Source of the DNA: a virus
Length of the DNA: 28,942 nucleotides
IMG/VR virus record: IMGVR_UViG_3300043409_000965
Span: 1 to 28,942 of that record
Direction: 5' to 3' (one strand)
Position 1 is the stretch's first letter. Each line of letters starts with the position of its first letter. Below the pieces are notes generated by a model that did not search any database, was not told the origin of the DNA, and saw only the letters and a program-made list of their open reading frames with translations. A program made the translations under genes and the position numbers. Positions 1,464 through 28,942 of this stretch are shown in pieces.

Positions 1464-1469
1464 TTGGTT

Positions 1470-4409: not shown

Positions 4410-4416
4410 AATTTTG

Positions 4417-4422
4417 ATTATA
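4417..4422 (-). promoter_or_regulatory. -10 element TATAAT for phoH, possible leaderless transcript
   Basis: On the minus strand TATAAT ends seven bases before the ATG at 4409. It overlaps the codons of the alternative longer start at 4436, which argues against that start. No clear TTGACA is seen 16-18 bases upstream. Confidence 0.6.
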
Positions 4423-4451
4423 GGGCACCGACACATTAACTGATAGCTAAA

Positions 4452-4746: not shown

Positions 4747-5200
4747 AATTTTTATTATTTAGCACTAGCATGGTATATTTGCGACTAAGTGTACGCGCAT
4801 GTAGGGCATTTATTCGTAAACCTGCCGCACGGAAAGCCTCTTGGATTTTATGAGGCCGTCTAAAATTGCTGCCTTTATCTAAATACTCGCTTTTGAACTC
4901 TATATCGAACATCTTGAACAGTTCCAACCATACACGCCTGCGGTCGTAGAACTCTTGCACTGCATCAGCACAGCCCCGCAAGTCGAAGTCTTCTTTTATA
5001 GTTTGATAGTACCACATCTCGATACCAAATAAGACTTGCTGTGCCTCTAATGCTGCCTCTTTGAACCTGCACCTAGCTAACGCCTGTAACACCTCCCAAA
5101 CCTCTTGGGCGGTGTGTGTAATGTGGTAGCGTATAGGAAGTGTCCTGCCGCCTAAAATATCATTATGCACTGCAGAGGCCTTGCGATTGACGCTACTCAT
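4727..5200 (-). CDS. Conserved phage protein, possibly MazG-like helical fold, 157 aa
   Basis: The protein is helical, with a central block HITHTAQEVWEVLQALARCR, then EAALEAQQVLFGIEMW, then RRRVWLELFKMFDIEF. I recall similar proteins as conserved hypotheticals in environmental phages. The E-x-x-E spacing in the first block followed by a second helix resembles the all-alpha NTP pyrophosphohydrolase (MazG) pattern. However, the typical EExxD metal site is not clearly present, so function is uncertain. The start ATG overlaps the stop of the Nudix gene by four bases (5197-5200), which suggests translational coupling. The C-terminus overlaps the next gene by 20 bases. Confidence 0.75.
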   Translation of the reverse strand: MSSVNRKASAVHNDILGGRTLPIRYHITHTAQEVWEVLQALARCRFKEAALEAQQVLFGIEMWYYQTIKEDFDLRGCADAVQEFYDRRRVWLELFKMFDIEFKSEYLDKGSNFRRPHKIQEAFRAAGLRINALHARTLSRKYTMLVLNNKNYVFSKA

Positions 5201-5844
5201 TTATTATACAATTTACGCATGTCTGGTCCTATATAGTTAGCCCCAAAAGGAGAGGCATGCTCTAGTGTTATTATCGGATCTGATCCAAAAGTAGAATTGT
5301 AGTTTCCTGGCTGTATATTGTGCTCGGTGAGCTCAAGGTAATGTTGACCGTCGTGCTTACCGAGGTGTCTGAAAGCGTTAGGATTCACGTGAACACCGAT
5401 CTCTTCATTTAATTCTCTTGCAGCTGCCTGTATAGGAGTTTCACCTTTCTCTATTCCCCCGCCTATATGCCTAACTTTGCCTATATTCGCAGGCCATTGA
5501 GGATTGTTTAGCTTTTCTAGTAAATATTGTCCCTTGTAAGGCAATACCACTCTCACCCTTTCTTGTGCGGCTATTTTTTGTGTCATACGTTTTTCAACAT
5601 TTAACGGAATTAGCATTTTAGGTGCGTGTATCCGGAATCCGCTAGGCTTGTGTGTTAAGCCTACATATTTGTCGTTTGTCACGCTGTCTACCTTGAACTG
5701 CTTCGGATACTTCAGCATGAGACTGCCGAGAATCTCGTTTTTGCCCGCATAGTCGTTTTTATCGGAAAGCCGTTTGGCTTCAATAAGCTGCTTTAAAGCG
5801 TACGACTTGGCTATTTTAACTAAAAATGCAGGAAACACAGTCAT
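5197..5844 (-). CDS. Nudix hydrolase with an N-terminal phage-type domain
   Basis: Residues 129-151 hold a complete Nudix box, G-x5-E-x7-REL-x-EE-x-GV (GGIEKGE ... RELNEEIGV), so the metal-binding Glu residues are all present. Nudix enzymes cleave nucleoside diphosphates linked to another group; the substrate here cannot be told. Residues 1-90 are not Nudix. They form a separate region with a helical start and the motif KYVGLTHKPSGFRIHAPK, which I associate with other phage proteins of unknown role. The gene heads a small leftward group (Nudix, 157-aa, 87-aa) joined by 4- and 20-base overlaps and ending at the terminator at 4452-4479. A promoter lies just upstream at 5878-5906. Confidence 0.88.
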   Translation of the reverse strand: MTVFPAFLVKIAKSYALKQLIEAKRLSDKNDYAGKNEILGSLMLKYPKQFKVDSVTNDKYVGLTHKPSGFRIHAPKMLIPLNVEKRMTQKIAAQERVRVVLPYKGQYLLEKLNNPQWPANIGKVRHIGGGIEKGETPIQAAARELNEEIGVHVNPNAFRHLGKHDGQHYLELTEHNIQPGNYNSTFGSDPIITLEHASPFGANYIGPDMRKLYNK

Positions 5845-5918: not shown

Positions 5919-7235
<1,317 letters not shown>

Positions 7236-13200: not shown

Positions 13201-14165
13201 CTTGTCTCTATCGCCTGCAGTTGCGTAGAAGTAAGACTGTTGAGCTGTGCAGACCCTAGTGCAGCTACCTGGTCAGTGGCCAAGGCTGTAATATCTTTAG
13301 GCTCAATCGCACTGAACTGTGTAGACGTAAATGAGTTTAATTGTGTAGATGTCAGCGCCTGTACCTGAGCCTCAGTGAGAGCCTGCATATCTCCTGTGTT
13401 AAGAGCTTGCAACGCTGATGTGGTTATAACTGCCAAGTCCCGAGGCTCGATGGTCTGTAACTGTGCCGAAGTCAGTGTTTCGATTTGCGCGGATGTAAGT
13501 ACAGCAGCTTGCTCGGTAGTTATGGCCACCAATTGAGTGCTTGAAAAAATTGTCAGCTGGGTACTGGTAAGATTACTGAAAGAACTGGTATTAAATCCAG
13601 CCACCTGTTCGCCTGTAAGTAAAGCTACTGCCGTAGTCGTCAGTGCAATAGATTGCTCCGAAGTCATGGACTTTACATCAAACGGTGTAAGATTCTGTAC
13701 TTCTTGGGTTGTGAGCGCAGCCACTTGTGAGGTTGTCTTTCCCACAACATCAGAAACAAATCTGAGTGCAGCATACTGTGGAGCAGTCAGTGCACTGAGT
13801 TGGGGCTGCAGTATACTGTTAACAGCTCCGGGAAGTATAGCTGCCAGCTGAGTTGTACTCATCGCCGACAACTGCGCTACGGATAAAGCTACAATGTTTG
13901 CCTCAGGAAATGCAGCTATCTGTGCGGTTGTGAGCGCTTGCACCTGCTCTACTGTCAACGCAGCTATCTGAGCTAAACTGAATGCAGCTACAACCTGAGG
14001 AGACAGAAGCCCGCTCAGTTGTTCCGGTGTAAGTGTGAGTATAGGTCCTGTACCCATACCTTTTACGTATCCCGCTGTCCATCTACTTGCAGGAAGTAAG
14101 ACAGGAACTAGAAAGAACCGCATCCCTGTAGATAAAGCCGCACCGAATGAAGATAAGAATGACAT
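7254..14165 (-). CDS. Giant two-part repeat protein (~2300 aa), putative virion fibre
   Basis: The start is taken at the ATG at 14165, seven bases after the upstream stop; an in-frame ATG at 14192 would add nine residues and overlap that gene. A ~45-residue non-repeat head leads into about 160 tandem octapeptides of the form [LF]-[ST]-[ST]-x-Q-[IVL]-x-[AS] (10185-14033). A bridging region of ~100 residues follows (MYLRTKNYF ... LFAAGLE, with one CNFC motif). The last ~870 residues are ~30 repeats of about 20-25 residues with the pattern W/Y-Y-[IV]-x-G-[VA]-x-x-x-G-L-[ND]-x-x-G-T-G. The second half recalls the aromatic-glycine rhythm of choline/glucan-binding repeats but is not clearly that family. 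I know of no protein that combines these two halves. The position inside a fibre array suggests a surface fibre that binds host polysaccharide; this is inference. Confidence 0.85.
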   Translation of the reverse strand: MSFLSSFGAALSTGMRFFLVPVLLPASRWTAGYVKGMGTGPILTLTPEQLSGLLSPQVVAAFSLAQIAALTVEQVQALTTAQIAAFPEANIVALSVAQLSAMSTTQLAAILPGAVNSILQPQLSALTAPQYAALRFVSDVVGKTTSQVAALTTQEVQNLTPFDVKSMTSEQSIALTTTAVALLTGEQVAGFNTSSFSNLTSTQLTIFSSTQLVAITTEQAAVLTSAQIETLTSAQLQTIEPRDLAVITTSALQALNTGDMQALTEAQVQALTSTQLNSFTSTQFSAIEPKDITALATDQVAALGSAQLNSLTSTQLQAIETRDIVVLTTTALTGLTAADLTALTSSQIEAFTTTQVGSFTSTQLAGIEVQDIPALTTAQVATLSSTQLSGFQPNQIAALETQDIPALSTAALAGLSTASIAALTSLQVAALTTAQLEAFSTTQLAALNTLGIVALTTTQASALTSTQVSALTSTQLASMEPHDFAVLTTAAISGISTTNISALTTAEIVALTPTQAAALSSAQVKALTTTQLAALEPHDLAAITTTVIAEISISQFSLEQISELTTAQVAVLTSTQIESLTTSQLNAIEPRDIAVLSTTVINSLTSTKIEALTEQQIAAMTLTQFGALTSSQLAAIEVRDIPFLTTAQMAGFSAVQAQGFTSTQLAAMETQDLAALTPAAVAVIPISQFSTTQLVALTTAQASALTSTQVATLSTLQFEALESRDVAALTTAVIASLSTDKIEALTTLQISALTVTQIQALNTSQVQAIEVQDIPVLTAAQMTGFSASQAVGFTSTQLAALETQDLAAMLPAAVAVIPISQFSTTQLVALTTAQARALTSVQVATLSTFQLVSMESRDIAAFSTTVIASLSTDNIEAMTTLQISALTVPQIQALTTAQLGVLELVDIPALTYSQIGALSSTQAEALSTLQLAAIEVPDISALSAAAIAAIPIAQFSVEQLQAISTTQARALTSTQVATLSTIQLAAMEPRDIAAFSTTVISTLSLPKIIALTAAQIAALTTTQIRSLTSTQVRTIEVADIPSLTPAQVAAMTTAQVAAFTGGQIFALEPQDAAAITASAIASISAPQLAALNNAAVGALTESQIGALTSTQIIGLNDEFFRDWVSLLSPAALPGMTTTAFAAMSAYQFSVLTDEEIAALTLEQGGAITSIQVAGMTVGDVTALSLNTTAVSALTTTAIGALSLEQLPYVSTTAIELLNVPQLRAISASAIPALTIEQIDVIPANRIQAFSTTQIQAITTEQLSSFTEEQIAGFNSLQFVGITTDQLLSLTGQQFAALDPGNFAEITNIQVDAIGLEQIGSITNAQAMYLRTKNYFLNKIQPWAIFNSDGAVGWMPPDQTFNTDLSNLFMAKVFKGWIGGETIEREYRIRTSGIAGGGEVTPPNDIPAGLYTLDEFYELYDLGRVYGSGAAYLFAAGLETNIRCNFCTYYISRNPTTLDSAGLGYWQHRYYTDGNLKTGYSAAESTWFIAGYKYPELSIPGFGYHYEDPNDPTIGLGEGYYVAGELKVGLDTAGTGWHAPSAKFYIEGVWKSGLNSEGTGSNGGYWYIAAVIITGLDSSGTGWHITGNTSDPNQDNSGNYGKYYVAGDYIVELPYTGTGWQPSTSRYYVSGVLSPFGSTGTGYWAAHPFGSPYKYFVSGSLTVGLNNEGTGWSVTGNDADPQQDNNYNRGRFYILGVYSDLVNYLGTGWITTNNVGDTPQYTSGSLGIYYMLTVAYPGLNGEGTGSSGDLTYVLGVVQQGLNGEGTGYLGGLYYVQNVLKTGWVVSEEKYFISGVYKSGINSAGTGGDGDAWYIEGVRMWGLNGQGTGLHTSSQKYYINGSLYTGNGAVVNNQYSGVWYIAGAIVDGLNGSGTGRRTVEPLLWYKVGNALNGVDYALTGTDIYHIGGAETTLNSGGTGGWDGGWYVSGVKQIGLNQSGTGWLSPSGPYFVNGTERLTLDQFGAGQIGELYYSGGAPLTGWNGTSWCIGGYPYFGLNSSGTGVSLAGSPFVGYYYVAGSLFAGTNGTNGWYIGGLIAAGLNVAGTGWLTPSGPYYIAGVPYALNSSGSGWLAEPEPGTYYYQGAATTLDSSGNGITGAWQYFLNGTPFSGLVNANLYSQPPWNLTSPHEFGSLYFVSGGYATNLIDPPGTGAHAGYWYIDGVLMTGLNASGTGTSGGLYYVGGSIYTGTNGTNGWYIEGVLMDGLNSVGTGGSGSSWYIGGVLITGLDENGDGTRESDQLYYEGGYPYTGTNDTDGWYIGGTLIPGLNASGNGIFNDLYYEAGSPFTGYVGEVYYSNGAVSTPPT
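7260..9890 (-). repeat. Aromatic/glycine repeats (Y-Y-[IV]-x-G ... G-L-N-x-x-G-T-G)
   Basis: About 30 degenerate units of 20-25 codons encode two aromatics, an x-x-G step and a GLN-x-x-GTG turn. Examples are WYIGGVLITGLDENGDG and YYVAGELKVGLDTAGTG. Some units are shortened to TNGTNGWYI. Units diverge in sequence but keep the spacing of aromatics and glycines. Confidence 0.85.
10185..14033 (-). repeat. Octapeptide (24-nt) tandem repeat array, ~160 units
   Basis: Units such as LTTAQVAA, LTSTQLAA and LSTLQFEA follow each other without gaps. Every 4-7 units one carries an acidic E-x-x-D variant (IEPRDIAV, LETQDLAA, IEVQDIPV). Hydrophobic residues fall at unit positions 1 and 6 and Ser/Thr at 2 and 3. 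The periodicity breaks near both ends, at about residues 110-150 and around the sequence NDEFFRDWVSLL. Confidence 0.9.
10920..12515 (-). repeat. Exact 399-nt (133-aa) super-repeat, four copies
   Basis: Four copies begin at 12515, 12116, 11717 and 11318 (minus strand) and run to 10920. Each opens with a 13-residue variant unit (ISISQFSLEQISE, IPISQFSTTQLVA twice, IPIAQFSVEQLQA) followed by 15 octapeptides with matching E-x-x-D positions. The spacing is exactly 399 bases each time. Confidence 0.9.
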
Positions 14166-14172
14166 AGGGTTA

Positions 14173-15342
14173 TTAACCGAAAAATGATACAACGTTACCC
14201 AGTATTAAGAAGTCTGCAGAAGCTTTTTTTAATATTGTAAAACTGTAATTAGTGTATGAATTTATCGATGATCCTGCAGGCGGTGTACCAGCCAGCCAAT
14301 AAACAGTTTTCAGTGCACCATCAACACTAACACTCGACATATTGTAGGCAGCATCTGCACCCTGTTTAACCATCAATACAAAACTCAAAGCTTGCCCAAT
14401 TCCCATAACTGTATTTAATGAGAATTCTCCATTCCCCCTAATATTCAATGCAAACAGGTTAGCGGCGTTACCCTGAAATACCAATATTTGTTGAGAAAGA
14501 ATATCGTAGTTTAAGGTTGAGGCAGGGCAACCTGAATCAAACATGCTAATTTCTCTAGCAGCTGCAGGTAGTACGGAATTGCCTGCCCCGTACGATGCAA
14601 TTGATCTGACTAATATCTGCGTACCTGGGGTAGGAGGTGCAGTAGTCAGTAATAGTGTCCCTCCGTTGGCTGCAGTTATAGAATAGTTTGTACCAGGCAC
14701 CTGGTCCATTGCACCCACACTTACAGTATAGCCATCTGGATCTATACCATTATATCCAAGAATAGGATAGTATAATACCTGCCCAGCTATTGAAGTAAAT
14801 GTTGTAGATTTAGATCCTGTGGTGAGGAATATAACGCCTGTGGCACCTGTCGCACCAGAGCCTGCAGGTCCTGTGGCTCCTGTAGGTCCGTCTGGCCCTC
14901 CGCCGGCTCCTGTAGGGCCTACCACACCTGTGGATCCTTGGACCCCAGTAGCGCCATCGACACCAGTAGCTCCCGTTGCTCCGGTAGCTCCTTGCACGCC
15001 TGTGGATCCTTGCACGCCGGTAGATCCATCCACTCCACCTGATTCGCCCTTTGGTCCTGTAGATCCTGCAGGACCTGTTGCTCCTAATGAACCGGTCGCA
15101 CCTAGCGCGCCTGTCGCTCCGGCAGTTCCTCCTGCACCAGTACCTACTTCAGTCCAACCTGCTCTGTCTGTATTTAATTTATATGCTTTATTGTCTTCTA
15201 AGCATGCTACGATTTGGCCTGCGTATCTGGCATTATTGGCTAAATACGCAGTTAGTTCGACGTTTGTGGCGAAAACGCTATGTAGGTCTAACGGTCCAGG
15301 GTATTGTCTTGAAAATTGAAGTGGGAATTCGAAAAAGGCCAT
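14173..15342 (-). CDS. Collagen-like virion fibre protein, 389 aa
   Basis: Residues 1-68 form an N-terminal domain ([20 protein letters not shown], then [17 protein letters not shown]) that is clearly paralogous to the start of the protein at 15359-17272. It probably anchors both to the same site on the virion. Residues ~70-170 are collagen-like Gly-X-Y with many Gly-X-Thr triplets. Residues ~171-250 match the fibre domain also found in 5919-7235 ([16 protein letters not shown] against INGYNGTDPAGYLISVDG). The C-terminal ~120 residues ([30 protein letters not shown]) match that protein's C-terminal domain. The spacing to the neighbours is 16 nt upstream and seven nt downstream, so it sits in one leftward operon. 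Confidence 0.85.
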
Positions 15343-15358
15343 ATGTGTGAGAGAATAG

Positions 15359-17272
15359 TTAAATTACTACATTATAAGACATTGCCTGACCAATAGCGTT
15401 AGCTGGTACAAATCTGTAAACCTTATAATTTACAGCATAACCTGGACCTGCTCCCTCAACAGATGGCGTAAACAGGGTCCATGATCCTTTGACGTCAGTA
15501 TTAAGAACACTTTCTTTGATACTAGTAACTGCTCGAATAGTATCTGGGTATGCCAACCATATACTCGTAACACCTACAGCAACAGGAATTGAAAACGCGG
15601 TGCCAGCTCCTGGACTATTTGCTGTACCTGAAAGGCTTCGTATAAAACTACTTGTAGGCTCCTGCACAGGGTTAGCTTGGTTTATCACTGCCGAACTTGT
15701 ACCGTAGAAAAGCCTTCTATACCCTGTCATAGAGAATGCGCTCTCTGGTGTTGTAGCGCTACCGAGCGGTGCACCCGGCGGATAATCTGCACCAGTGCTG
15801 TCCTTAGCCTGCACACTACCCGCGGCGTAATCAACGGTAGCCCTGTAATAAACAGTGCTAGCTGTATAAGTAACGGCTCCTATAACTGACGTGTTTTGAG
15901 GCGCAGCCAGGGTTACATTGTTAATTGTATAATCTGTAGCTGCTCCTGCTCTTGCACCTTGTGTAGCACTCGTAGACCACGCGTTATTCACAATATTACC
16001 ATTAATACTTCCAGGGCTATAGGTCACTGTTAGCGTTAGTGACCCTGTTGTACCTACCTCAGCAGTTGATGCTAAATTAGCGATTAATACTCCCGAAGGG
16101 GGTGTGAGGGTTGGGTAGAAAGTTGACACCAGTAACTTTTGAATAAACCCACCCAAAGTTGTACCGGAGTTGATTATAAAGCCTGCAGGTAATGCTCCTA
16201 GCGCTATGTTTGTAGTGATAGAGTCGGCGGTAACAGTCAAACTGGATCCTTCAGGTACATTGATGCTTCCTGCAGGTCCTGTCGCACCCAAGGCTCCTGT
16301 GGCTCCTGCTCCTGTAGCTCCTGCTGGTCCTGTAGCTCCATCTGGGCCAGTAGCTCCTATTCCTGTAGCGCCAGTAGAGCCTAGTACACCAGTGGCTCCT
16401 GTGGATCCTAATACAACTCCTGTGGCTCCTGTAGGTCCCACTACACCTGTCGAGCCATCAACACCAGTAGACCCTGTTACACCAGTAGCTCCCGTTACTC
16501 CTGTAGCACCATCGACACCAGTAGATCCTGTTACTCCTGTGGATCCTTGGACTCCTGTGGATCCTTGGACTCCTGTAGCACCATCAACACCTGTTGCTCC
16601 TGTTACTCCTGTGGATCCTTGGACTCCTGTGGATCCTTGGACTCCTGTAGCACCATCAACACCTGTTGCTCCCGTTACGCCTGTGGATCCTTGCACTCCA
16701 GTAGCGCCATCAACACCTGTTGCTCCTGTCACACCTGTGGAGCCTTGCACGCCGGTAGATCCCGTTACTCCAGTAGCACCATCAACACCTGTTGCTCCCG
16801 TTACTCCAGTAGATCCTTGCACGCCTGTAGCACCATCCACACCAGTGGATCCTTGGACTCCTGTGGATCCTTGTACTCCTGTGGATCCTTGCACGCCTGT
16901 AGAACCATCCACACCAGTGGATCCTTGGACTCCTGTGGATCCTTGTACTCCTGTGGATCCGTCAACACCAGTAGATCCTGTTACTCCTGTGGATCCTGTT
17001 ACACCTGTTGCTCCTGTTACGCCTGTGGCTCCCTGAGAACCTGTAGCTCCGGTAGCGCCAGTACCCGAACCTATCCCAAGTTCTTCCCACGCAGTTCTAT
17101 CTGGATTTAACTTATACGCTTTATTTGTTGCGACGCATGCGACAATTTGTCCTGCATACCTTAAAGAATTACTTAAATAGGCTGTAAGTTCAGCTTCTGT
17201 AGCGAAAACGGCGTGAACATCTAACGGTCCAGAATATAGCCGAGAATATTGAAGTGGAAAATCTAAAGGCAT
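15359..17272 (-). CDS. Long collagen-like virion fibre protein, 637 aa
   Basis: The N-terminal ~68 residues ([20 protein letters not shown]) are paralogous to the protein at 14173-15342. Residues ~72-337 are almost uninterrupted Gly-X-Y triplets, roughly 88, dominated by [12 protein letters not shown] and GVD, with Thr very often in the third position. Residues ~338-637 form a beta-rich C-terminal region ([42 protein letters not shown]). It is paralogous to the C-terminal region of the next gene and is of a type I recall in many phage fibre proteins. The DNA of the collagen part contains a near-perfect 72-nt duplication (16531-16674). The gene is probably a trimeric fibre with a C-terminal receptor-binding or trimerisation head. 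Confidence 0.88.
15719..15890 (-). repeat. Highly similar block shared with 17628-17800
   Basis: About 170 bases encoding the conserved middle of the C-terminal domain are close to identical with 17628-17800 in the next gene. The first ~35 bases are identical and the rest differ mostly at scattered third positions. Flanking parts of the two genes are much more diverged. Confidence 0.8.
16531..16674 (-). repeat. 72-nt tandem duplication in collagen-like coding sequence
   Basis: Bases 16531-16602 and 16603-16674 differ by one base by eye. Each encodes 24 residues (eight Gly-X-Y triplets). The surrounding sequence is made of diverged copies of the same 9- and 18-nt units. Confidence 0.85.
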
Positions 17273-17276
17273 ATGA

Positions 17277-18893
17277 TTAGGCAGGTAAAGTTACTGAATA
17301 TCTGACAGCGCTATTGAAAGGAGCATCTCCTGTCCACGTATATACTTTATAAGCTATGCCAGCTTCTGAGTTTGCTCCCTCTACAGTGAAAGGGGTTTTA
17401 ACAAAGGTATTACCTACAGCCGTATTAGCCGCTTCTACGTATTTCACAGATTCATCCACTAGATCGCCATGGCTAGTAGCTGGATAGGCTATCCATATTT
17501 TAATAGAACCTGCAGGTATATTGATTGTGAAATTAGATGCTGTGCTAACAGCGGACCCTGTCAAACTACGTATGTTGTTGCTTGTTACTGGAGCCTTGGT
17601 ACTAGTAGCGCCGTAGAACAATTTTCTATACCCTGTCATAGAGAATGCGCTCTCTGGTGTTGTCCCGGCCTCTAACGGCGCACCCAGCAGATAATCTGCA
17701 CCGGTGCTGTCCTTAGCCTGTACACTACCCGCAGCATAATCAACGGTAGCCTTGTAAGAAACAGTGCTAGCTGTATAAGTAACGGCTCCTATAACTAACG
17801 TGTCTTGAGTCGCACCCAGGTTTACATTGTTAATTTTATAATTTGTAGCTGCTCCTGCCCTGAAGCCTTGAGAAGTGCTGGGACTCCATATGCCCCCTAC
17901 GGTTTGTCCCACTATGCTTCCTCGATTATAAGCTACAGTTAAAGTTAAATTTTCCGTGGTGCCGATTTCAGCAGAACTAGATATGCTCCCGGCTAGTGAG
18001 GCGGTTGGAGGATTTAAAGTTGGGTAGAAAGTTGATACCAATAGCTTCACAACAAATTCCTGAAACGTTGTCCCTGTATTGATTAGTGTGTTTGCAGGTA
18101 TTGAACCTACTGCGGTGTTTGAAGTGACCGATGACGATAGTGCAGCTAAAACTGTACCTTCAGGTATAGTAAGATCTCCTTTAGGTCCTGTCGCACCCAA
18201 GGCTCCAGTAGCCCCATCAACACCAGTAGCTCCTGTTACACCTGTTGCCCCTGCAACCCCAGTAGCTCCTAATCCTGTTGCGCCGACTGATCCAGTGGCT
18301 CCTGTGGATCCTAATACAATTCCTGTGGCTCCTGTAGGACCTACCACACCTGTTGAACCATCAACACCAGTGGATCCTGTTACCCCAGTAGCTCCCGTTA
18401 CTCCAGTAGATCCTTGGACCCCAGTAGCACCATCCACACCAGTAGATCCTTGCACTCCTGTGGATCCTGTTACCCCAGTAGATCCTTGAACGCCGGTAGA
18501 GCCATCAACACCTGTGGATCCTTGCACGCCGGTAGATCCTTGAACGCCGGTAGAGCCATCAACACCAGTAGACCCTGTTACTCCTGTCGATCCTGTTATG
18601 CCGGTAGCTCCTGTAGATCCTGCGATTCCAGTTGCTCCAGTTGCTCCGGCAGGACCTGTGGCACCAATAGCACTTCCGACCTTTATGACAAGATCTCCGT
18701 CGGCTATGCCGGTAGCAAACCAGTATTCAGCCATTATATTACTTACGGTACCTACACCCACTATCAAGCCATGATATCTAACGCTTGGTAGCAGTGCAGC
18801 TAGCGCTGCTTCTGGTCCAGTATATGGACCGTATCTATGGTCAGTAGGTCTAGGAGCAAGTACATTAATGTTGTCGCTAAGAGGAATAGGCAT
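17277..18893 (-). CDS. Collagen-like virion fibre protein, 538 aa
   Basis: The N-terminal ~76 residues ([20 protein letters not shown], then [10 protein letters not shown] and YWFATG) differ from the two downstream paralogues in detail but keep the same type of anchor layout. Residues ~77-238 are Gly-X-Y collagen-like, rich in GST/GVT/GVD/GAT. The C-terminal ~300 residues are a full paralogue of the C-terminal region at 15359-17272. One block ([30 protein letters not shown]) is almost unchanged between them, while the last ~100 residues have diverged. It lies four nt upstream of the next gene. It is probably an alternative or companion fibre; divergence at the tip fits a receptor-facing end. 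Confidence 0.87.
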
Positions 18894-18901
18894 AAACTAT
18901 A

Positions 18902-20515
18902 TTAGTTACGAAATTGTACTGGAGTTGTACCTGCATATGCAGCTGGAAAGGCACTTATATACACCCTAAAATTAGTTGTCCATTTACTTGCAGGTGCGAT
19001 AATAGACTTGGTTACTGGCGCTAATATAGCCTGCCCTGCACCTATAGGGGCATTGTCAAGGGCGCTAATGTAGTAATTTGTTTTATCTGAGTACATTGCA
19101 GCATGCGCAAACCAAATGTATTCGCTAGGAGTATTGTTAAAGGTTATAGTCACAGGCGATACTGATGCAGGCGCTAGTACTTTAGTTGCACCGATTCCTG
19201 TATTTATCGCCGCAGCTATAGTGTTTACGGTAGGTTGTGTAGCAGATTTACCGAAGTAATATGGATATATACCTGCAAATGAATATGGAATAGAAACGGC
19301 CGTACCGCCGCCAGCGTAAGGGTTATCTACCAGCACGCCTCTACTGTTTTTTAATTGTTGCCCTCCTGCCGGGTAAGTAGCTTCAAACTGCAGAGTGACT
19401 GGAGTCGTGGTAGCGGTGATTAATGGCGGATTATTTGGGCTACCATAGTTCATGCTCACACTATACTCTATATTCGGACCATTAGGGTTAGCATACCCGA
19501 ATTGAGGACCAAGGTAATAGGTTATCGCCGGGTTATTTAGCTCAATTGTATCAAAAATGTCCATAGTCCGCTTAACTTCCCCGTTTTGTTTAAGTACAAT
19601 AGTGGGTGCTCCAACATTGGCATTATTTTTAAAGTAGGTGGCAGAGACAGCGTTGAAGAAATCTCCTAGCCCATCAGCCGGCCGGCCGATACTTAATTTA
19701 TCTCCTACTTCTACGGTACCTAAATTAAACCTGCTCCACATCAGAGGGGCAGCTATCGTGGGTGCAGTCACTGGGAACAATAGCTCGTCGATTACATAGC
19801 TCATCGACTTATCTTTCCAATCTGACGCTGGTCTTGCTGTAGCTCCTCCTACAGTCGTACTCATCATCGCATCAATCACACTAGGTACGTAATTTCCCCC
19901 TGCTCCAGTAGCTCCTACTGGTCCTGTGGCCCCTTCCACACCGGTAGCACCAGTAGATCCTTGCACACCTGTGGATCCTTGTACTCCTGTTGCTCCTGTT
20001 GCTCCCGTTACTCCAGTAGCACCATCAACACCAGTAGATCCTTGCAATCCTGTGGCTCCTGTCGAACCCATAAGTCCTGTTGCACCTGATAACCCAGTTG
20101 CCCCATAAGTACCTGTTGCACCAGTTGCGCCAGTTGCCCCATTACCTCCTCCGCCAGCAAAGGACGCCAATGTCCAGTTAGCTATTGTATTTGGTACTGC
20201 CCCAGTACCTGTATTCCTAGACTGGGCCCCTATTAGTTTATACTTGTAATAGCTGTCACCGGCACGTTCAGTAGCTGGAACAGGAGGAGTAGCAGCTGGG
20301 TCTCCGTCAGCTTCAGTGTACGCTGTCTTCACGTACACAAGCATCCCTTCTTGTAGACGCTGCCCTGGTATGTTTAAGAGTTTATCTGTGCCTGTACCTG
20401 TAATGCTTTGTAATGTGCCTCGCAGATCAGTATCAAGTACTACAGGTGCTGGCGAGGCAGAGGTCCAAGTTCCTGGCCAGTAATTCGGAGACAGTCCGTC
20501 AAAATTTGCACTCAT
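18902..20515 (-). CDS. Collagen-like virion fibre protein, 537 aa
   Basis: Residues 1-125 form a distinct N-terminal domain ([44 protein letters not shown]) unlike the other fibres here. Residues ~126-205 are collagen-like with Gly-X-Thr triplets. The C-terminal ~330 residues are beta-rich and end with the same kind of domain as its neighbours: [35 protein letters not shown] near the end. The match to the paralogues is at the level of pattern (aromatic-FG, IWFA/IWIAYP, YxVY) rather than close identity. It is nine nt upstream of the next fibre gene and one nt downstream of the 830-aa one. Confidence 0.85.
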
Positions 20516-20516
20516 A

Positions 20517-23009
20517 TTAAGATATACTCACGTATGTTGTTCCTGGCTGCAGCGTGAAGCCCCAAAGTCTATAAGCTTCTTTAGTTTGGTCTGTAGGTAA
20601 AGGGTTAGGTCCTAGATCTACAGATCTTTGAACCACACCTGCAACGTTTGCTGCATCTTCAGCTTTAGTACCTGTCTTAAACGCAGTGGGAGGTGAAGCT
20701 GCATTGCGTACACCAAACCAGAATGCTACAGGATTTCCTGCAGGCACGGTAATGAGGCCTGCAAACGCTTTAGCTTGACTGTCGAGTACTTGCACACCTC
20801 CAGCAAACCCATCACCGCTGACGATAGTTGCCTCAGTAGGTACAATCGAAGTCTCCGCTGTAAACACATAGAATGACGGGTACGTGAACTGTGCATTTGT
20901 ATTTACGCTGGCTGACTCAGTCGGACCTAAAGTGACTGTGACAGGCGTATTTCCGATAACACTGCTGGGTCTTTCGCAGGTGGTAGTTAACGTTACGTTT
21001 GTAGTGGTGGATGCTGCATTGGTTTTATTGATTGGTGTATCAAAGGTCAATGTACCTGCATCAGTAGTGTTATAAGGAGCGCTAGCTTTGCTATTGTTTG
21101 CAGTGATACTGAACGTCCTGTTTGCAGCAAAAGAAATGTTTGGAGTAGATGGTGTATACGTGGTAGAGGTGTACGCTCTAAGAAATGTATTTCCTGTCAA
21201 TGGAGTGATTGCTATATTGTGAGTAGCGTCTCTCCATGTAAAAATGACTCGCGATTTGGCAGGGCTCTCAACTGTAGGCCATGGCCCCACTACCCCAGCA
21301 TTTGAATAATTTACAGTAACATCTGCGCTGGCTGTGCCTCCCAGATAATTATCAGATGTAGAAAGTATTTTCTCTGTACCTACAGGATATGTTAGTAGCA
21401 TGTTTGTTAACGAAGCTCCTATAGTTCCTGTCCTTGTATATTTATCTAACCCAGGGAACACACCTGTAATCGGTGTAAGACTCAGAGGCTCTGTAATAAA
21501 TTGGGCTGGAGTATCCGTCGGATTAGTGGCTGCAATGAACCATGACGCGACCGGAATATCCCAATTAAGAGTAATATTTGACTGTATTAACGTAGGATTG
21601 AAAGAAGCCAGCGTCAGTTCTAGGATACCATTCAGCAGCGAGACTGTACGGATAGGGGCTACTACATCTGGTGTACCGTTGTCACGAAAACCTGTTAACC
21701 TTCTTACAGAAGCTGCGGTAGTAAATACAAGGTTACCTGCAGCATTTCCTGGTGCTCCTGAAGCACCAGTAGCTCCTGTGGGTCCACCTGCCGGACCTGT
21801 AGCTCCTTCAGGTCCTGTTGCACCATAACCTGTAGCTCCAGCAGTACCGGTAGCTCCAGCGACCCCTGTCGCACCTGCGCCAGTTGCACCAGCAGGTCCT
21901 GACTGTGCGTATAATAGTTGTCTGATGGCTAACGTGGCTGAGGGTACAGGCACCCCGCCGTAAGCAATAGCTTTTACCAAATACATTACACCTGCACCGC
22001 TTGCCTGCTTTAGTCCGATATAAAATCCTGCACTTGTATCCGTTACATTTAAAATAAATGTATTAGCTACCTCTCTAATGGTAGTGGTTGCGATAGGAAT
22101 GTAATGAACTTCGGTGGTGTTAGGTGCTAACCCTGGACTTGTACCACCTACAAACTGACCATATACTGTCAAATTTCTAGCTACGCTAGAATTCGTAACA
22201 TAGAAGGTATATGAAATTTCGTAAATACCACCTTTGGCAAAAGAAATAATTCCGTTAGTTATAGTGATACCTTCAGCACTAGCTGCAGTAGCAGTAGGTC
22301 TCATCAACCGGACCTCAACATCTATAGGAATAACTACATCTGCATCAGATACAGCATTTTTAACAATAGCGTATGTACCTGGCACAACTACAGCAGGAGC
22401 TCCGGTAGCTCCAGTTAATCCTGTGGCTCCAATTCCTGTAGCTCCGGTTAATCCGGTAGCTCCGGTTAATCCGGTAGCACCAGTAGCTCCGCTAGGGCCT
22501 GTAGCTCCGTCTGGTCCAGTAGCTCCACTAGGTCCAGTAGCTCCACTAGGTCCAGTAGCTCCATCTGGTCCAGTAGCTCCGGTGGCACCTAGTCCTGTAG
22601 CTCCGTCTGGTCCAGTGGCTCCAGTTGCACCTAATCCAGTAGCTCCAGTTGCACCTAATCCGGTAGCACCGCTAGGTCCAGTAGCTCCTTCAGGTCCTGT
22701 AGCACCGCTAGGTCCGGTAGCTCCTGCACCTGTAGCTCCAGTTGATCCTAGACTGCCTGTGGCCCCGGTAGCTCCTAAAAATCCGGTAGCGCCTGTTGCC
22801 CCTAAACCAGTAGCACCGACTACCCCTGTTGCACCTAACGAGCCTGTCGCGCCAGTGGCTCCAATTCCAGTTGCACCAGTTGCCCCTAGTCCGGTAGCAC
22901 CTGTTGCTCCTCTAGCTCCTGTAGCGCCTGTTGCTCCATCTGCTCCTGCAGAACCTGTTATAAAAGTACCCGCCGTCCCGGCTGCTGGTGCTGATGTAGA
23001 AAAGAACAT
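20517..23009 (-). CDS. Large collagen-like fibre protein with C1q/TNF-like domain, 830 aa
   Basis: A short head is followed by a collagen-like segment (~21-205) built mainly of GAT triplets with regular one-residue interruptions (GLGATG, GIGATG). Residues ~207-365 ([38 protein letters not shown]) have the pattern of a C1q/TNF-like jelly roll, as in the trimeric C-terminal domain of Bacillus BclA. A second collagen segment spans ~368-421. The last ~410 residues are beta-rich and end in a domain related to the other fibres ([36 protein letters not shown]). A jelly roll between two triple helices suggests a trimeric rod with a knob part-way along it. It lies nine nt after the 180-aa gene. Confidence 0.86.
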
Positions 23010-23018
23010 ATATGTATA

Positions 23019-23561
23019 TTATGCTTCGTAAGCCACGTATCTTTTAGCGGCGCTACAAAAGACGTGTATTGCGTTGGTAGGTACGAAATTTTCCCATGCA
23101 ATCCCGCCTCCGCCGGCACCTATGACTATACCGTTTGAACCTTTGGCGTCGCCTATACTAATAAACATACTGATATCAGAAGGATTCTGAAAAAAGAAAT
23201 ATTGCCTTTCAGGGTTAGCGGCAACTATTTGTAGGCTGACACCAGCGGGGGTCAATGCACCGGTAGGATTGAGATTTGTAAACGAAGCAGCTTTAGGGGT
23301 GCCCGACACCATCAAATTACCTTCAATATCTGTACGTACAGGATTAATTGCGTTATCAGCACCTACCCCACACACAATGACAGTTTCGGTTTCAGGTGAA
23401 GCATACATTGCATCGATATTCTTCTCTATCCATTTTTCACCATCTGAATAGTAATATCTTCCAAGATCTGTAGCAAAAAAATAAGTACCGTACTGGCCTG
23501 GTGCGTTAGGCAGGAGGCGAGTAGCTAAAGGGCCTGAGTTGGTAGTCTTGTTCAGAGTCAT
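23019..23561 (-). CDS. Small phage structural protein, 180 aa
   Basis: This small protein probably belongs to the virion. Residues ~15-50 (NAPGQYGTYFFATDLGRYYY, then SDGEKWIEKN) resemble the short anchor regions of the neighbouring fibres. Residues ~105-180 (VAANPERQYFFFQNPSDISM, SIGDAKGSNGIVIGAGGGG, WENFVPTNAIHVFCSAAKRY) match a common phage structural domain of the form 'N-P-x-R-x-Y-x-x-x-Q-N-x-S-D ... P-T-x-A-I'. It has no collagen repeats. It is the first gene of the fibre array, nine nt before the 830-aa fibre gene, and may be an adaptor or a decoration protein. Confidence 0.78.
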   Translation of the reverse strand: MTLNKTTNSGPLATRLLPNAPGQYGTYFFATDLGRYYYSDGEKWIEKNIDAMYASPETETVIVCGVGADNAINPVRTDIEGNLMVSGTPKAASFTNLNPTGALTPAGVSLQIVAANPERQYFFFQNPSDISMFISIGDAKGSNGIVIGAGGGGIAWENFVPTNAIHVFCSAAKRYVAYEA

Positions 23562-23613
23562 AAAATTAAGTAGTGTAGGGTGATTATAACAAAGCCTAAC
23601 TATTTTGTCACAC

Positions 23614-24504
23614 TTATCCTACCAGAAGATTTAGCCAATTGTCGAGAGAGTATTTCCAGTCAAAATTATCTTTTGCGTACTGCTGAGCTCTTTCACACTC
23701 AGTTTTGTATACTTTTGGATCTGTGCACGCCAACAGAGCTTTCCTAGCATCTTCGACGAAACCCTCGTCGTCAGTTCTGCAGAGCATGCCTGCGGCACCA
23801 TTAAAATAACCTACTTCTGTAGATATCACCAACCTGCCTGCGGCAGCAGCTTCCATTGAAGGAAGTCCTGCTGTCTCGCTAGATGATGGCACCAGTATGG
23901 CGTCAATTGTCGGATAATATCCTGACATGCATATGTGATTATAAAACTCATGAACCTTAAAATTAAAAGGCATACCCTCCATTACAGGAGGAATAAGATG
24001 TGTGCGCTTACAGTCTACGTCATAAACGGTCTTGTGTGCACTATCTCCAGCGTAGCCTACAACTCTCAAAGACTCTGCTACAGGTGTGTAATAATGATCA
24101 AAGTCTATACCTACACGTACAAGCTCTGGTGTTCTTGCTATACCCCTAGCAAGAGAAGCCGCTATCAGATCAGAATGCACAACGCCATAGCTTTTTAACT
24201 CGTTGAACATCTGCACGCCCACTGTCTGAATTCCCCCTTCAATGTCTCTTTCTGAGTGCGCTATTGAAACTATTTTTGAAGGAGATATACCTGCAGCCAC
24301 TAACGCAAACACGGCTTCAGGTGTAGTGACGAACGTATCATATCTTGAGTTTAAAAGATTGTATTCATTGCTAGTATACGGCTGTGTCCAATCTAGTAGC
24401 TGTGAGAATATCTTATGTTCCCACAGTCTTTTAATCAACGCATGGTGTATTTGACCGAAAGCCCATCTATTTTGAGTAAAGAATAATACAGTGTGTTGTT
24501 TCAT
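23614..24504 (-). CDS. GT4-family glycosyltransferase, 296 aa
   Basis: This is a GT-B fold glycosyltransferase. Residues 210-218 (ETAGLPSME) form the E-x7-E motif of retaining GT4 enzymes, followed by AAAAGRLVIST as in the donor-sugar site. The N-terminal half is short (VLFFTQNRWAFGQI, then LLDWTQPYTSNEY). It is a clear paralogue of the gene at 25107-26003: both are ~297 aa, with the E-x7-E motif at the same residue numbers and the same ending (CERAQQYA, DW). The stop of the FkbM-like gene lies one base before this start, so the two are translationally linked. The donor and acceptor cannot be told. A role on virion fibres or on host surface sugars is possible. Confidence 0.88.
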   Translation of the reverse strand: MKQHTVLFFTQNRWAFGQIHHALIKRLWEHKIFSQLLDWTQPYTSNEYNLLNSRYDTFVTTPEAVFALVAAGISPSKIVSIAHSERDIEGGIQTVGVQMFNELKSYGVVHSDLIAASLARGIARTPELVRVGIDFDHYYTPVAESLRVVGYAGDSAHKTVYDVDCKRTHLIPPVMEGMPFNFKVHEFYNHICMSGYYPTIDAILVPSSSETAGLPSMEAAAAGRLVISTEVGYFNGAAGMLCRTDDEGFVEDARKALLACTDPKVYKTECERAQQYAKDNFDWKYSLDNWLNLLVG

Positions 24505-24505
24505 G

Positions 24506-25114
24506 CTATTTGCGAAATATTAATACCAATTCGTCACCTGATTGTGCTCCCGTCTCATATCCGTGTGATGCAGCCTGCGTGAGTAGCATCTGTAACTCTT
24601 TGCGACAAGTCATACCGTTATTTTCAAAAATAATCTTACGAGGTAGCCACTCTTTTTCTTTACCGCTGTGTTCAAAATATCTGAAAAAACTCATCAGAAT
24701 TCTACAATCAGCTCCCTCAGTATCTGTTTTAAGTGTTTTTATTCCCTCGACGTCATGCTCATCAAGTATTTTTCCTATAGGTAACTGGAGCACATTTTCT
24801 TTTCTAACAATGTCGCGGATGTTTAGCTTTAAGTGCTCTACATGGTAATCATCTATTCTATTACAACCTCTCAGCCACGAAGGTAAATTACGGCGAGCTA
24901 TATCGTCAGGATGTACGTAATATATTGTGCTTATTCTTTCAATATCGTCAAACGCTACAGCTAATTTTAATTTTTTAACGTTAGGTTTATCAGGTAATCT
25001 GTCTAGGTAGTAACCCAACGGCTCAATAACAAGGCCGACGCTGTCTTCAGCGCATGTCTGCACTATAGTGTCAAAATCACTAGTCCCTATTTCTATAAAA
25101 TCAAAATTACTCAT
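24506..25114 (-). CDS. FkbM-like SAM-dependent methyltransferase, 202 aa
   Basis: The start MSNFDFIEIGTSDFDT is a motif I-type SAM-binding loop and begins almost at residue 1, which is typical of short phage FkbM-like proteins. VIEPL at about 29-33 is the second SAM-contact motif. LKTDTEGADCRIL at 128-140 is the characteristic FkbM acidic motif. FkbM-type enzymes mostly O-methylate hydroxyls on sugars and natural products. The gene sits between two paralogous GT4 glycosyltransferase genes, with an eight-base overlap to the upstream one and a one-base gap to the downstream one. This placement suggests it methylates the glycan those enzymes make. I infer this from position only. Confidence 0.82.
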   Translation of the reverse strand: MSNFDFIEIGTSDFDTIVQTCAEDSVGLVIEPLGYYLDRLPDKPNVKKLKLAVAFDDIERISTIYYVHPDDIARRNLPSWLRGCNRIDDYHVEHLKLNIRDIVRKENVLQLPIGKILDEHDVEGIKTLKTDTEGADCRILMSFFRYFEHSGKEKEWLPRKIIFENNGMTCRKELQMLLTQAASHGYETGAQSGDELVLIFRK

Positions 25115-26003
25115 AGCTAGTAAGCAGTTCTACATATTTGTTTATTACGTTGTCCCAGTCATAATGCTCTCGCGCATACTGCTGGGCTCTTTCACAATTA
25201 TCTCTGTATACGACAGGGTCTTTACAACGTTCAAGATGAGAAACCGCATCAATTATAAACTCTTCATCTGGAAGCCTACACAGCAACCCAGAGCTACCAT
25301 CAAAGCTGCCGGCTTGGGCTGCAAGTACAAGCCTACCTGCTGCAGCCGCCTCCATTGCAGGTAGTCCGCAACCCTCATATTTCGACGTTACCAATAAACT
25401 ATCTATGGTCTCATAATAGCCAGCCACACACATGTGGTACATCCTGTTGTTTATTTTCAATGGTAGTTCTGCAGCTTCTGAAATAGGCTTTAAAAGATAC
25501 GACCTCTTAAAGTCTGAAAAATCGCTCATTTCGCTTGAAGCTGCTCCTGCATAGCCAAGTGTTTTGAGGCTAGGGCTTATTGAAGAATAGAAATAATCAA
25601 AATCTATACCGTTAGGTACAACTAAAGGTACACGAGATATGCCGGCTCTGTGTGACACATCGACCAAGTGCTCATGGATCACACCGTAAGCTTGCAACTC
25701 GTCATACATTCCTAGCCCGCACCTATTTATGCCAAATATAATATCTTTTTCATGATGTGCTACAGCAATAATTTTAGACTTAGGTATGTTGTACGACATT
25801 ACACTATCTATCGCGCTAGGTTCGGTAACTATTGCGTCGAATTTACGCATCAAGAACTCAAATTCTTGATGCGTGTAGCTTTTGCGCCAATCTAATATGT
25901 GGGCATAGATGCCGTACTTAGCCAGTCTTCTGGTGAGGGAGTTATAAATCTGCCCAAAGGCCCAGTCGTTCTCGAAAAAGAACAATACTCTTTTTTTATT
26001 CAT
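25107..26003 (-). CDS. GT4-family glycosyltransferase, 298 aa
   Basis: This is the paralogue of the gene at 23614-24504. The starts VLFFFENDWAFGQIYNSLTR and VLFFTQNRWAFGQIHHALIK align without gaps. The E-x7-E motif is at residues 210-218 (EGCGLPAME), followed by AAAAGRLVLA. The VPNGIDFDYFY segment matches the GT4 inter-domain linker. The two copies flank the FkbM-like gene, so duplication and insertion, or duplication around it, is likely. It is the first gene of the three-gene set. Upstream is the 113-nt gap that holds the inverted repeat at 26020-26102. No Shine-Dalgarno is seen; the start is preceded by AT-rich sequence. Confidence 0.88.
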   Translation of the reverse strand: MNKKRVLFFFENDWAFGQIYNSLTRRLAKYGIYAHILDWRKSYTHQEFEFLMRKFDAIVTEPSAIDSVMSYNIPKSKIIAVAHHEKDIIFGINRCGLGMYDELQAYGVIHEHLVDVSHRAGISRVPLVVPNGIDFDYFYSSISPSLKTLGYAGAASSEMSDFSDFKRSYLLKPISEAAELPLKINNRMYHMCVAGYYETIDSLLVTSKYEGCGLPAMEAAAAGRLVLAAQAGSFDGSSGLLCRLPDEEFIIDAVSHLERCKDPVVYRDNCERAQQYAREHYDWDNVINKYVELLTSYE

Positions 26004-26019
26004 AATAACTAAAGGTATG

Positions 26020-26102
26020 GGGTGGAGGAGGCGACTACGTGCAGCGTAATCCTAGGAGGTCAACTCCCGATCGGTATAACACCAGTCCAACCTCCTCCGC
26101 CC
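26020..26102. repeat. GC-rich inverted repeat in the gap between glycosyltransferase genes
   Basis: GGGTGGAGGAGG (26020-26031) can pair with CCTCCTCCGCCC (26091-26102): 11 of 12 positions are Watson-Crick, and the remaining T opposite G can wobble-pair. The 59-base interior holds a smaller GGAG/CTCC hairpin. There is no T run on either side, so it is not a normal terminator. It may form RNA structure in the leader of the 25107-26003 gene. On the minus strand the 17 codons after the stop at 26117 read open through the right arm. Confidence 0.5.
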
Positions 26103-26116
26103 AAAGTAAATATCAA

Positions 26117-27262
26117 TTACACATACAGAGCTTTGTAGTTAAGCCCTACACCTGTAGTCAAAGGACGGTTATGATCTTCATACCAGCCTGCTTTATTAAA
26201 CACGTCCGAGAAATCAGCAAAGGCTCGTTCAAACTTCGGACGCACTGCATCTAAGCTAAAGTTGTCTCTAGCAAAATTAGTCATTTTTGTGCGATCGACG
26301 GTATCAACCAATCTGATTGCGCGTTGAATGTCTCCCATAGTATTACAACGAAAACCGTTAACTCCATCCACCACGTACTCAGTCATCGCACCAACGTCTG
26401 AGCATACCGGGACACAACCACTGAGCATCATCTCTACAGCCGTGCCACCAAACGGCTCCCAGTAAGTAGAGAGTAGAAACCCGAACTTAGCACGACTCAT
26501 GAGATCTTTTCTTTTGTTAAGATCTGCATAGCCTAGATACTCGACATGTTCAGGCCAACTCTGCATGCCGATGTCTGTGGGTCCTCCCTGTCCACACACT
26601 TTAAGTTTAACTCCCATACGCTTGCACGCATCAATGGCGATATCCAACCCTTTATTTGTTCCAATTCTGCCAATATACAATGCAAAATCATCCCGCTCAG
26701 CCTTGGACTCAAAGTCATTCAAGTTAAAATAATTGGGCACTACCCGCCAGTACCACTGAGGATTACAATACGATACGCCGCTAGTTCCTACAAATGCTCC
26801 TCGTAAAGGATATGACTCATAGCATCTGAATTGAGCAAACGCCCAGCCACAGCCAATACCAGGCTCCACTATAATGAGATCTCCTTCATTAGCTCCTTGC
26901 GCAGCTGCTTGTGTGCCTCCCCAGAAACAGAGCACCAAGTCACCGCGCTTTTTACGCTTTTTGATTTCTACTGCAGCACGAGCATTAAACGTTACATGTG
27001 CGTGATCATCTGAGCTGTGCTTAAAAAAGTTCTTTTTCCAGTCGTACCCTCCGTATGCCTGCGCCAGCACGTCGTTGTCAGTTACATCAACTTGTTCGTG
27101 CGCATCAGTGACAGACTCGTTGTGGCCGTAATGAATTGTACGGTATTCTGTAGAATCTTTGAACATCGTCAAAAACTTACGAACTTTCTGGGTAAACGCA
27201 CACGCAACATATTCTTCGTTGGTGATTGTATGTGGTAGGGCTAAGCAGTGAATATTAGTCAT
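26117..27262 (-). CDS. GT4-family glycosyltransferase, 381 aa
   Basis: This is a full-length GT-B glycosyltransferase of the GT4 family. The C-terminal donor domain begins at about residue 193 (FALYIGRIGTNKGLDIAIDA). The E-x7-E motif is at residues 279-287 (EPFGGTAVE), followed by MMLSGCVPVCSDVGAMTEYV. It is longer than and not closely similar to the other two transferases here, so it probably acts on a different sugar or acceptor. It has its own promoter-like sequence (27269-27298) and lies downstream of a terminator. A collagen-like fibre gene precedes it and the other glycan genes follow it. Confidence 0.9.
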   Translation of the reverse strand: MTNIHCLALPHTITNEEYVACAFTQKVRKFLTMFKDSTEYRTIHYGHNESVTDAHEQVDVTDNDVLAQAYGGYDWKKNFFKHSSDDHAHVTFNARAAVEIKKRKKRGDLVLCFWGGTQAAAQGANEGDLIIVEPGIGCGWAFAQFRCYESYPLRGAFVGTSGVSYCNPQWYWRVVPNYFNLNDFESKAERDDFALYIGRIGTNKGLDIAIDACKRMGVKLKVCGQGGPTDIGMQSWPEHVEYLGYADLNKRKDLMSRAKFGFLLSTYWEPFGGTAVEMMLSGCVPVCSDVGAMTEYVVDGVNGFRCNTMGDIQRAIRLVDTVDRTKMTNFARDNFSLDAVRPKFERAFADFSDVFNKAGWYEDHNRPLTTGVGLNYKALYV

Positions 27263-27298: not shown

Positions 27299-27320
27299 TA
27301 CCTTATAAGTAAAAAAGCGA

Positions 27321-27351
27321 AGACCGCTCTATTTTTTAGATAGAGCGGTCT
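27321..27351 (-). terminator. Intrinsic terminator after the collagen-like gene
   Basis: An 11-bp perfect stem pairs 27321-27331 (AGACCGCTCTA) with 27341-27351, with a nine-base loop. On the minus strand a run of six T (27311-27316) follows four bases after the stem. It ends transcription from the gene at 27380. Confidence 0.8.
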
Positions 27352-27379
27352 CACCACAACTATACTGTCAGGCTACTAG

Positions 27380-28942
<1,563 letters not shown>

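What the first reader, a model, noticed from the sequence alone, without database searches (positions are those of the whole stretch)
23614..27262. GT4-FkbM-GT4 cassette plus a third GT4 among collagen fibre genes: possible virion self-glycosylation
Three retaining-type transferases, each with an intact E-x7-E motif, and a sugar-type methyltransferase lie between collagen-like genes. Those collagens carry Thr in the Y position of very many triplets. Threonine in Gly-X-Thr is glycosylated in Bacillus BclA and in Riftia cuticle collagen, where the sugar stabilises the helix. The phage may therefore encode its own O-glycosylation and methyl-capping for its fibres. Alternatives are modification of host surface glycans or of DNA.
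Basis: inference. Interest (0 to 1): 0.66.

Follow-up and report, generated by a model that had tools for sequence, protein, structure and literature searches.

The report
Phage enzymes that likely sugar-coat collagen fibres
This phage carries three sugar-adding enzymes and a sugar-methylating-type enzyme beside its collagen-like fibre genes, and across many viral sequences one of these enzymes turns up almost only where threonine-rich collagen also occurs, which suggests that some phages glycosylate their own collagen fibres.

Summary
Window 23614-27262 (minus strand) holds GT4 (26117-27262, 'GTlong'), GT4 (25107-26003, 'GTshort1'), an FkbM-type methyltransferase (24506-25114) and GT4 (23614-24504, 'GTshort2'), between collagen-like genes. 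All three GTs keep an invariant E-x7-E; models of GTlong and GTshort1 are GT-B.

Comparison tested the interpretation. GTlong-carrying viral records of at least 28 kb carry Pfam Collagen in 25 of 29 cases, against 3 of 45 random records and 0 of 50 records with another phage GT4 family. Cyanophage S-CAM7 has the same order (collagens-GTlong-GTshort). GTlong is fused to FkbM or other methyltransferases in several phages. The only GTlong from the genome-contig scan lies divergent to a Thr-rich collagen in an apparently chromosomal Acidobacteriota contig. Collagens of GTlong records have more Thr in Y (median 0.60 against 0.25) and less charge.

Best reading: GTlong starts O-glycosylation of Gly-X-Thr, while GTshort and the methyltransferase extend and cap. 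The collagen link is well supported; the Thr site, sugar and cap are inferred. About 35 related loci lie beside terminase genes instead, and most collagen phages lack GTlong. No biochemistry exists, and I found no earlier report of phage collagen glycosylation in the library searched.

The parts
26117..27262 (-). GTlong: 381-aa retaining GT4 (phrog_3408); E-x7-E codons at 26458-26432; proposed enzyme for the first sugar on collagen
   Evidence: collagen co-occurrence
25107..26003 (-). GTshort1: 298-aa GT4 (phrog_18799); E-x7-E codons at 25376-25350; proposed glycan extension
24506..25114 (-). FkbM-type SAM methyltransferase, 202 aa, overlapping GTshort1 by 8 nt; proposed O-methyl capping
   Evidence: FkbM fused to GTlong in L103 and L088
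23614..24504 (-). GTshort2: 296-aa GT4, tandem paralogue of GTshort1 (43% identity); E-x7-E codons at 23877-23851
27380..28942 (-). Collagen-like protein whose 5' part runs off the window; 98 triplets counted, 72 with Thr in Y
27320..27352 (-). Terminator-like hairpin (13 pairs, T tail) between collagen and GTlong
23583..23611 (-). Promoter-like site (11 of 12, with TG before the second hexamer) downstream of GTshort2, ahead of the next fibre genes
23019..23561 (-). 180-aa protein without family match; a relative lies just after GTlong in phage contig L028
20517..23009 (-). Collagen-like tail-fibre-type protein, 830 aa
18902..20515 (-). Collagen-like tail-fibre-type protein, 537 aa
17277..18893 (-). 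Collagen-like protein, 538 aa
15359..17272 (-). Collagen-like protein, 637 aa
14173..15342 (-). Collagen-like protein, 389 aa
5919..7235 (-). Collagen-like protein, 438 aa

Best explanation
The cassette most likely builds a glycan on the phage's own collagen-like fibre proteins. GTlong transfers the first sugar in alpha linkage (retaining GT4) from a host nucleotide sugar to Thr (sometimes Ser) in the Y position of Gly-X-Y repeats. This would stabilise the triple helix in place of hydroxyproline and charge pairs. GTshort1 and GTshort2 then add further sugars, and the FkbM methyltransferase O-methylates one of them as a cap. Shown: the enzyme families, fold and motif; conserved gene order; GTlong-collagen co-occurrence; the GTshort-with-GTlong hierarchy; fusion of GTlong with methyltransferases; enrichment of Thr in Y. 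Inferred: that collagen is the acceptor, that Thr is the site, the order of the enzymes, the methyl cap, and helix stabilisation.
For: Co-occurrence: PF01391 on 25 of 29 GTlong records of at least 28 kb, against 3 of 45 random records (Fisher p 1.7e-12) and 0 of 50 records with an unrelated phage GT4 family (p 1e-16). For the first 22 records grouped at 80% GT identity it is 15 of 16 groups. The only random record with GTlong has collagen just upstream of it. Gene order collagen-GTlong-GTshort recurs in S-CAM7. ACG-2014f has collagen near its GTlong. Among T4-like cyanophages collagen is in 2 of 2 with GTlong and 2 of 14 without. Bacterial context: the only GTlong in the genome-contig scan is a methyltransferase fusion divergent to a collagen with 44 of 63 Y-Thr, among metabolic and secreted-protein genes. 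A second genome of that phylum has GTlong right after a GPS/GPT collagen. Composition: Y-Thr median 0.60 (40 records) against 0.25 (39), p 3e-6; by GT groups p 0.006; charge 0.03 against 0.13. Hierarchy: GTshort is nearly always with GTlong. GTlong-FkbM and GTlong-methyltransferase fusions exist.
Against: About 35 of 80 GTlong loci lie between small-terminase and MazG/dCMP deaminase/large-terminase genes, not beside collagen. Four large GTlong records show no collagen: G011 at 95.7 kb and three fragments of 30-34 kb. Only 3 of 50 collagen-bearing records have a clear GTlong, so most phage collagens do without it. Thr in Y is common in bacterial collagens generally, and one GTlong record (G113) has only 10% Y-Thr. 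The sample is phylogenetically clustered: against proline-containing GTlong-negative collagens the group-level Y-Thr difference is weak (p 0.036). FkbM is near the Pfam cut-off. Nothing biochemical exists.
Confidence: 0.6

Rival explanations
1. The GTs and methyltransferase modify host surface glycans (O-antigen or capsule) to exclude superinfection, and lie among fibre genes because both belong to the hypervariable host-recognition island.
For: Published reading for glycosyltransferases in pelagimyophage host-recognition regions (PMC7029224). GT4 and FkbM families are typical of polysaccharide pathways. In L474 the pair lies near secreted-protein genes.
Against: Does not predict collagen on 25 of 29 GTlong records but 0 of 50 records with another phage GT4 family, nor the Thr enrichment. 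No polymerase or flippase gene was recognised beside the cassette.
Confidence: 0.18
2. The GTs glycosylate other virion proteins (capsid, tail tube, or the Thr-rich ALTTAQ-repeat giant protein), as in mycobacteriophages, and collagen is only a correlate.
For: Virion glycosylation by phage GTs is reported for mycobacteriophages (cited in PMC12619734 and PMC11256854). About 35 GTlong loci sit beside terminase genes. The window encodes a 2312-aa Thr-rich repeat protein.
Against: Frequent collagen co-occurrence, and the bacterial GTlong next to collagen in an apparently chromosomal setting.
Confidence: 0.13
3. The GTs decorate modified phage DNA bases, with the methyltransferase as part of a base hypermodification path.
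For: DNA glycosylation is a known phage GT role. dCMP deaminase and MazG genes lie near the gene in one related phage group. A phage GT (HY126) is among the structural matches of GTlong, at rank 46.
Against: No base-hydroxymethylating enzyme was recognised in the window, though it is a partial genome. Does not explain the collagen link or the bacterial copy beside collagen.
Confidence: 0.06

Closest known systems
Bacillus BclA exosporium collagen glycosylation
   Same: Thr-rich Gly-X-Thr collagen that is O-glycosylated, with methylated sugars in the glycan (glycan detail from own knowledge; glycosylation of BclA in PMC8968730)
   Different: Cellular spore protein made with host pathways; here the genes are phage-borne, in the fibre region, with a distinct GT4 family
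Mimivirus collagen hydroxylation and glucosylation (L230 and the galactosylhydroxylysyl glucosyltransferase)
   Same: A virus encodes both collagen and collagen-modifying enzymes (PMC9546862, PMC5802723)
   Different: Acts on hydroxylysine in a eukaryotic virus; the window's collagens have almost no Lys in Y (0.01) and the enzymes here are GT4 with no lysyl hydroxylase
Mycobacteriophage virion glycosylation (Freeman et al. 2023, cited in PMC12619734)
   Same: Phage glycosyltransferases decorate virion proteins
   Different: Targets there are capsid and tail-tube C termini, not collagen repeats
Synechococcus phage S-CAM7 and ACG-2014f fibre region
   Same: Homologous GTlong (44% and 43%); S-CAM7 also GTshort (37%) in the order collagen-GTlong-GTshort
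   Different: A 2OG-Fe(II) oxygenase follows instead of FkbM; annotated only as glycosyltransferase or hypothetical

Membership tests
Retaining glycosyltransferase family GT4 | Pfam Glycos_transf_1 or Glyco_trans_1_4 over the cut-off | tested here: met
   GTlong 62.2 bits PF00534 (cut-off 26.4); GTshort1 28.3 and GTshort2 29.6 bits PF13692 (cut-off 27)
Retaining glycosyltransferase family GT4 | GT-B fold | tested here: met
   Models of GTlong and GTshort1 match BshA, MshA, PimA and tll1591 at E 1e-11 to 1e-18; GTshort2 not modelled
Retaining glycosyltransferase family GT4 | E-x7-E motif | tested here: met
   Present in all three and invariant in relatives
FkbM methyltransferase | PF05050 over the cut-off | tested here: met
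   23.1 bits against 22.7 for the window; 26.4 in L005; 66.6 and 59.7 in the GTlong fusions L103 and L088
FkbM methyltransferase | O-methylation of a sugar hydroxyl | not testable with these tools
   Needs biochemistry
Collagen-modifying glycosylation system | Genomic coupling of enzyme and collagen beyond chance | tested here: met
   25 of 29 against 3 of 45 and 0 of 50
Collagen-modifying glycosylation system | Glycan on Gly-X-Thr in the mature protein | not testable with these tools
   Needs glycoproteomics
Hydroxylysine-linked collagen glycosylation (mimivirus or animal type) | Lys in the Y position as acceptor | tested here: not met
   Y-Lys fraction 0.01 in the window
DNA base glycosylation system | Base-hydroxymethylating enzyme in the genome | tested here: inconclusive
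   None recognised in the 28.9-kb window, but the genome is incomplete

The most novel reading that the evidence does not exclude
A widespread, mobile phage pathway for maturing collagen: GTlong initiates O-glycosylation on Gly-X-Thr, GTshort extends, interchangeable methyltransferases cap, and in cyanophages a neighbouring 2OG-Fe(II) oxygenase hydroxylates the same collagens. The same initiating enzyme is shared with rare bacteria that carry it beside their own collagen.
Probability: 0.35. Interest if true: 0.85.

Novelty: new variant of a known kind. Interest (0 to 1): 0.68.

Why it matters
Phage collagens are not expected to carry hydroxyproline, and how long Thr-rich, often proline-poor phage collagen fibres stay folded is an open question. 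A phage-encoded collagen glycosylation path would answer it for a subset, would give a third setting for collagen glycosylation beside animals with giant viruses and Bacillus spores, and would give many aquatic phage GTs, now read as O-antigen or DNA modifiers, a virion substrate. Cultured cyanophages such as S-CAM7 make it directly testable.

Tried and rejected
A simple rule 'GT always next to collagen' was rejected: only 12 of 33 GTlong loci with at least 3 kb on both sides have collagen within 3 kb; the link holds per record, not per locus. My first tally of 21 of 22 came from records picked by hand; I completed the set with the other GTlong records of 28 kb or more, giving 25 of 29. A general 'phage GT goes with collagen' effect was rejected by the control GT4 family (0 of 50; 1 of 80 loci against 18 of 79). 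PF00534 in general is in 12 of 50 collagen records and 5 of 45 random ones, a weak difference. The 2OG-Fe(II) oxygenase as a firm part of the system was not accepted: it also stands beside fibre genes in S-CAM9, and a piuC gene annotated as ferrochelatase does so in P-SSM2; both lack GTlong, and the window has none. Lysine-linked glycosylation was rejected for lack of Lys in Y. FkbM alone found no relative among phage records. A T4-type late promoter word (TATAAATA) is no more frequent than chance. A control scan with the G062 GT gave only its own locus.
Full report
1. What is there. On the minus strand, reading downstream: a collagen-like gene that runs off the window (27380-28942), GTlong (26117-27262), GTshort1 (25107-26003), an FkbM methyltransferase (24506-25114, overlapping GTshort1 by 8 nt), GTshort2 (23614-24504, 1 nt gap), a 180-aa protein, then collagen-like genes at 20517-23009, 18902-20515, 17277-18893, 15359-17272, 14173-15342, a 2312-aa repeat protein, and a collagen at 5919-7235. 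Pfam and PHROGs confirm the enzyme families. GTshort1 and GTshort2 are paralogues (43%). E-x7-E is in all three and invariant in relatives. AlphaFold models of GTlong and GTshort1 are confident and match solved GT4 enzymes such as BshA, MshA, PimA and the alpha-1,2-glucosyltransferase tll1591. A 13-pair terminator-like hairpin lies between the upstream collagen and GTlong, and an 11-of-12 promoter-like site follows GTshort2, so the four genes may form their own unit.

2. Relatives. In isolated phages GTlong is found in ACG-2014f, S-CAM7 and, weakly, S-CBWM1; GTshort only in S-CAM7. S-CAM7 has collagen, collagen, GTlong, GTshort, 2OG-Fe(II) oxygenase, tail fibre; ACG-2014f has collagen, methyltransferase-like protein, GTlong, 2OG-Fe(II) oxygenase, fibre. 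In IMG/VR I fetched 21 GTshort and 80 GTlong loci; at least 412 GTlong stretches exist. The trio GTlong-methyltransferase-GTshort recurs with different methyltransferases, and GTlong is fused to FkbM in L103 and L088 and to another methyltransferase in L065. Loci with GTshort nearly all carry GTlong where enough upstream sequence exists, while only 32 of 100 loci with GTlong have GTshort. Contig L028 (GTlong 75% identical to the window's) has collagen, GTlong, then the relative of the 180-aa protein, without GTshort or FkbM, so the GTshort-FkbM-GTshort block looks like a module added in this lineage (inference).

3. Is collagen really linked? Not always locally: 12 of 33 GTlong loci with at least 3 kb flanks have collagen within 3 kb, and about 35 loci lie between small and large terminase genes. 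But per record the link is strong: Pfam Collagen on 21 of 22 large GTlong records and 4 of the 7 remaining ones of at least 28 kb, 25 of 29 in all. Controls: 3 of 45 random records of at least 28 kb (sampled by an arbitrary 14-mer), and 0 of 50 records with another widespread phage GT4 family. The single random record with GTlong has its collagen immediately upstream. Fisher p values are 1.7e-12 and 1e-16; they ignore relatedness, but 15 of 16 groups at 80% GT identity in the first set still have collagen. Within T4-like cyanophages, collagen passes the cut-off in both GTlong phages and in 2 of 14 others, P-SSM2 and S-CAM9 (p 0.05). The converse does not hold: only 3 of 50 collagen-bearing records have a clear GTlong.

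4. Thr in Y. Records with GTlong have collagens with a median of 0.60 Thr in Y (window 0.65) against 0.25 without, and fewer charged residues (0.03 against 0.13). After grouping by GT identity p is 0.006 against all GTlong-negative records and 0.036 against those with proline. The literature averages are 31.6% for bacteria and 48.3% for Gram-positives (PMC8968730), so a high value by itself is not proof.

5. A non-phage test. A scan of 84,980 bacterial and archaeal genomes with a GTlong-FkbM fusion found one relative: a GTlong fused to a methyltransferase in a Pyrinomonadaceae MAG, in a contig with a GMC oxidoreductase, other metabolic genes and secreted-protein genes, divergent to a collagen with 44 of 63 Y-Thr. 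That scan reaches close relatives only. A search of 396 genomes of that phylum found one more distant GTlong, on a contig with large repeat-type and phage-like ORFs, directly after a GPS/GPT collagen interrupted by a run of N. Host-surface or DNA modification during infection does not explain the first case.

6. Mechanism. The simplest model is that GTlong puts the first sugar on Thr (or Ser) in Y, GTshort enzymes extend and the methyltransferase caps. Steps shown are family, fold, gene order, co-occurrence, hierarchy and fusions; acceptor site, sugar, order and cap are inferred. That O-glycosylated Thr in Y can replace hydroxyproline in helix stabilisation (Riftia cuticle collagen, BclA) is established knowledge recalled, not tested here.

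7. Known work. I found no report of phage collagen glycosylation in the papers searched; GTs of aquatic phages are read as O-antigen or DNA modifiers or, in one paper, with virion glycosylation as a possibility. Mimivirus modifies collagen on lysine. The library lacks most subscription papers, so novelty is provisional.

8. Limits. IMG/VR records are fragments; contamination of the MAG contig cannot be excluded, although its neighbours look chromosomal; the FkbM score is marginal; the control GT4 family is a single family; no biochemical evidence exists.

Noticed in passing
window 2-511 and 1464-2039, plus strand: C-terminal part of a ribonucleotide reductase (phrog_367, 4.6e-15) followed by a cobalamin adenosyltransferase (PF01923, 6.3e-40): a phage that may encode both a B12-dependent reductase (class inferred) and the enzyme that makes its cofactor.
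   Followed up: partly
window 7254-14192, minus strand: 2312-aa protein with 33 ALTTAQ repeats (PF20080) followed by repeats of the type WYIxGxxxxGLNxxGTG; a giant Thr-rich putative fibre.
   Followed up: no
window 3657-4436 and 5197-5844, minus strand: PhoH-like ATPase and Nudix hydrolase close to the fibre module.
   Followed up: no
L474 (Pyrinomonadaceae MAG contig), 10792-19656: Several related small secreted proteins, an 821-aa secreted protein and a collagen-like gene beside a GTlong-methyltransferase fusion: possibly a bacterial surface-fibre locus.
   Followed up: partly
S-CAM9 L384 9252-10417; P-SSM2 L383 10678-11271: 2OG-Fe(II) oxygenases (S-CAM9), and a piuC gene annotated as ferrochelatase (P-SSM2), just downstream of collagen-containing tail-fibre genes in cyanophages without GTlong; possible collagen hydroxylases.
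   Followed up: no
L058, L062, L023 and similar loci: In one large phage group GTlong, often with a phrog_3603 methyltransferase or GTshort, stands near terminase genes while the collagens lie tens of kb away.
   Followed up: partly
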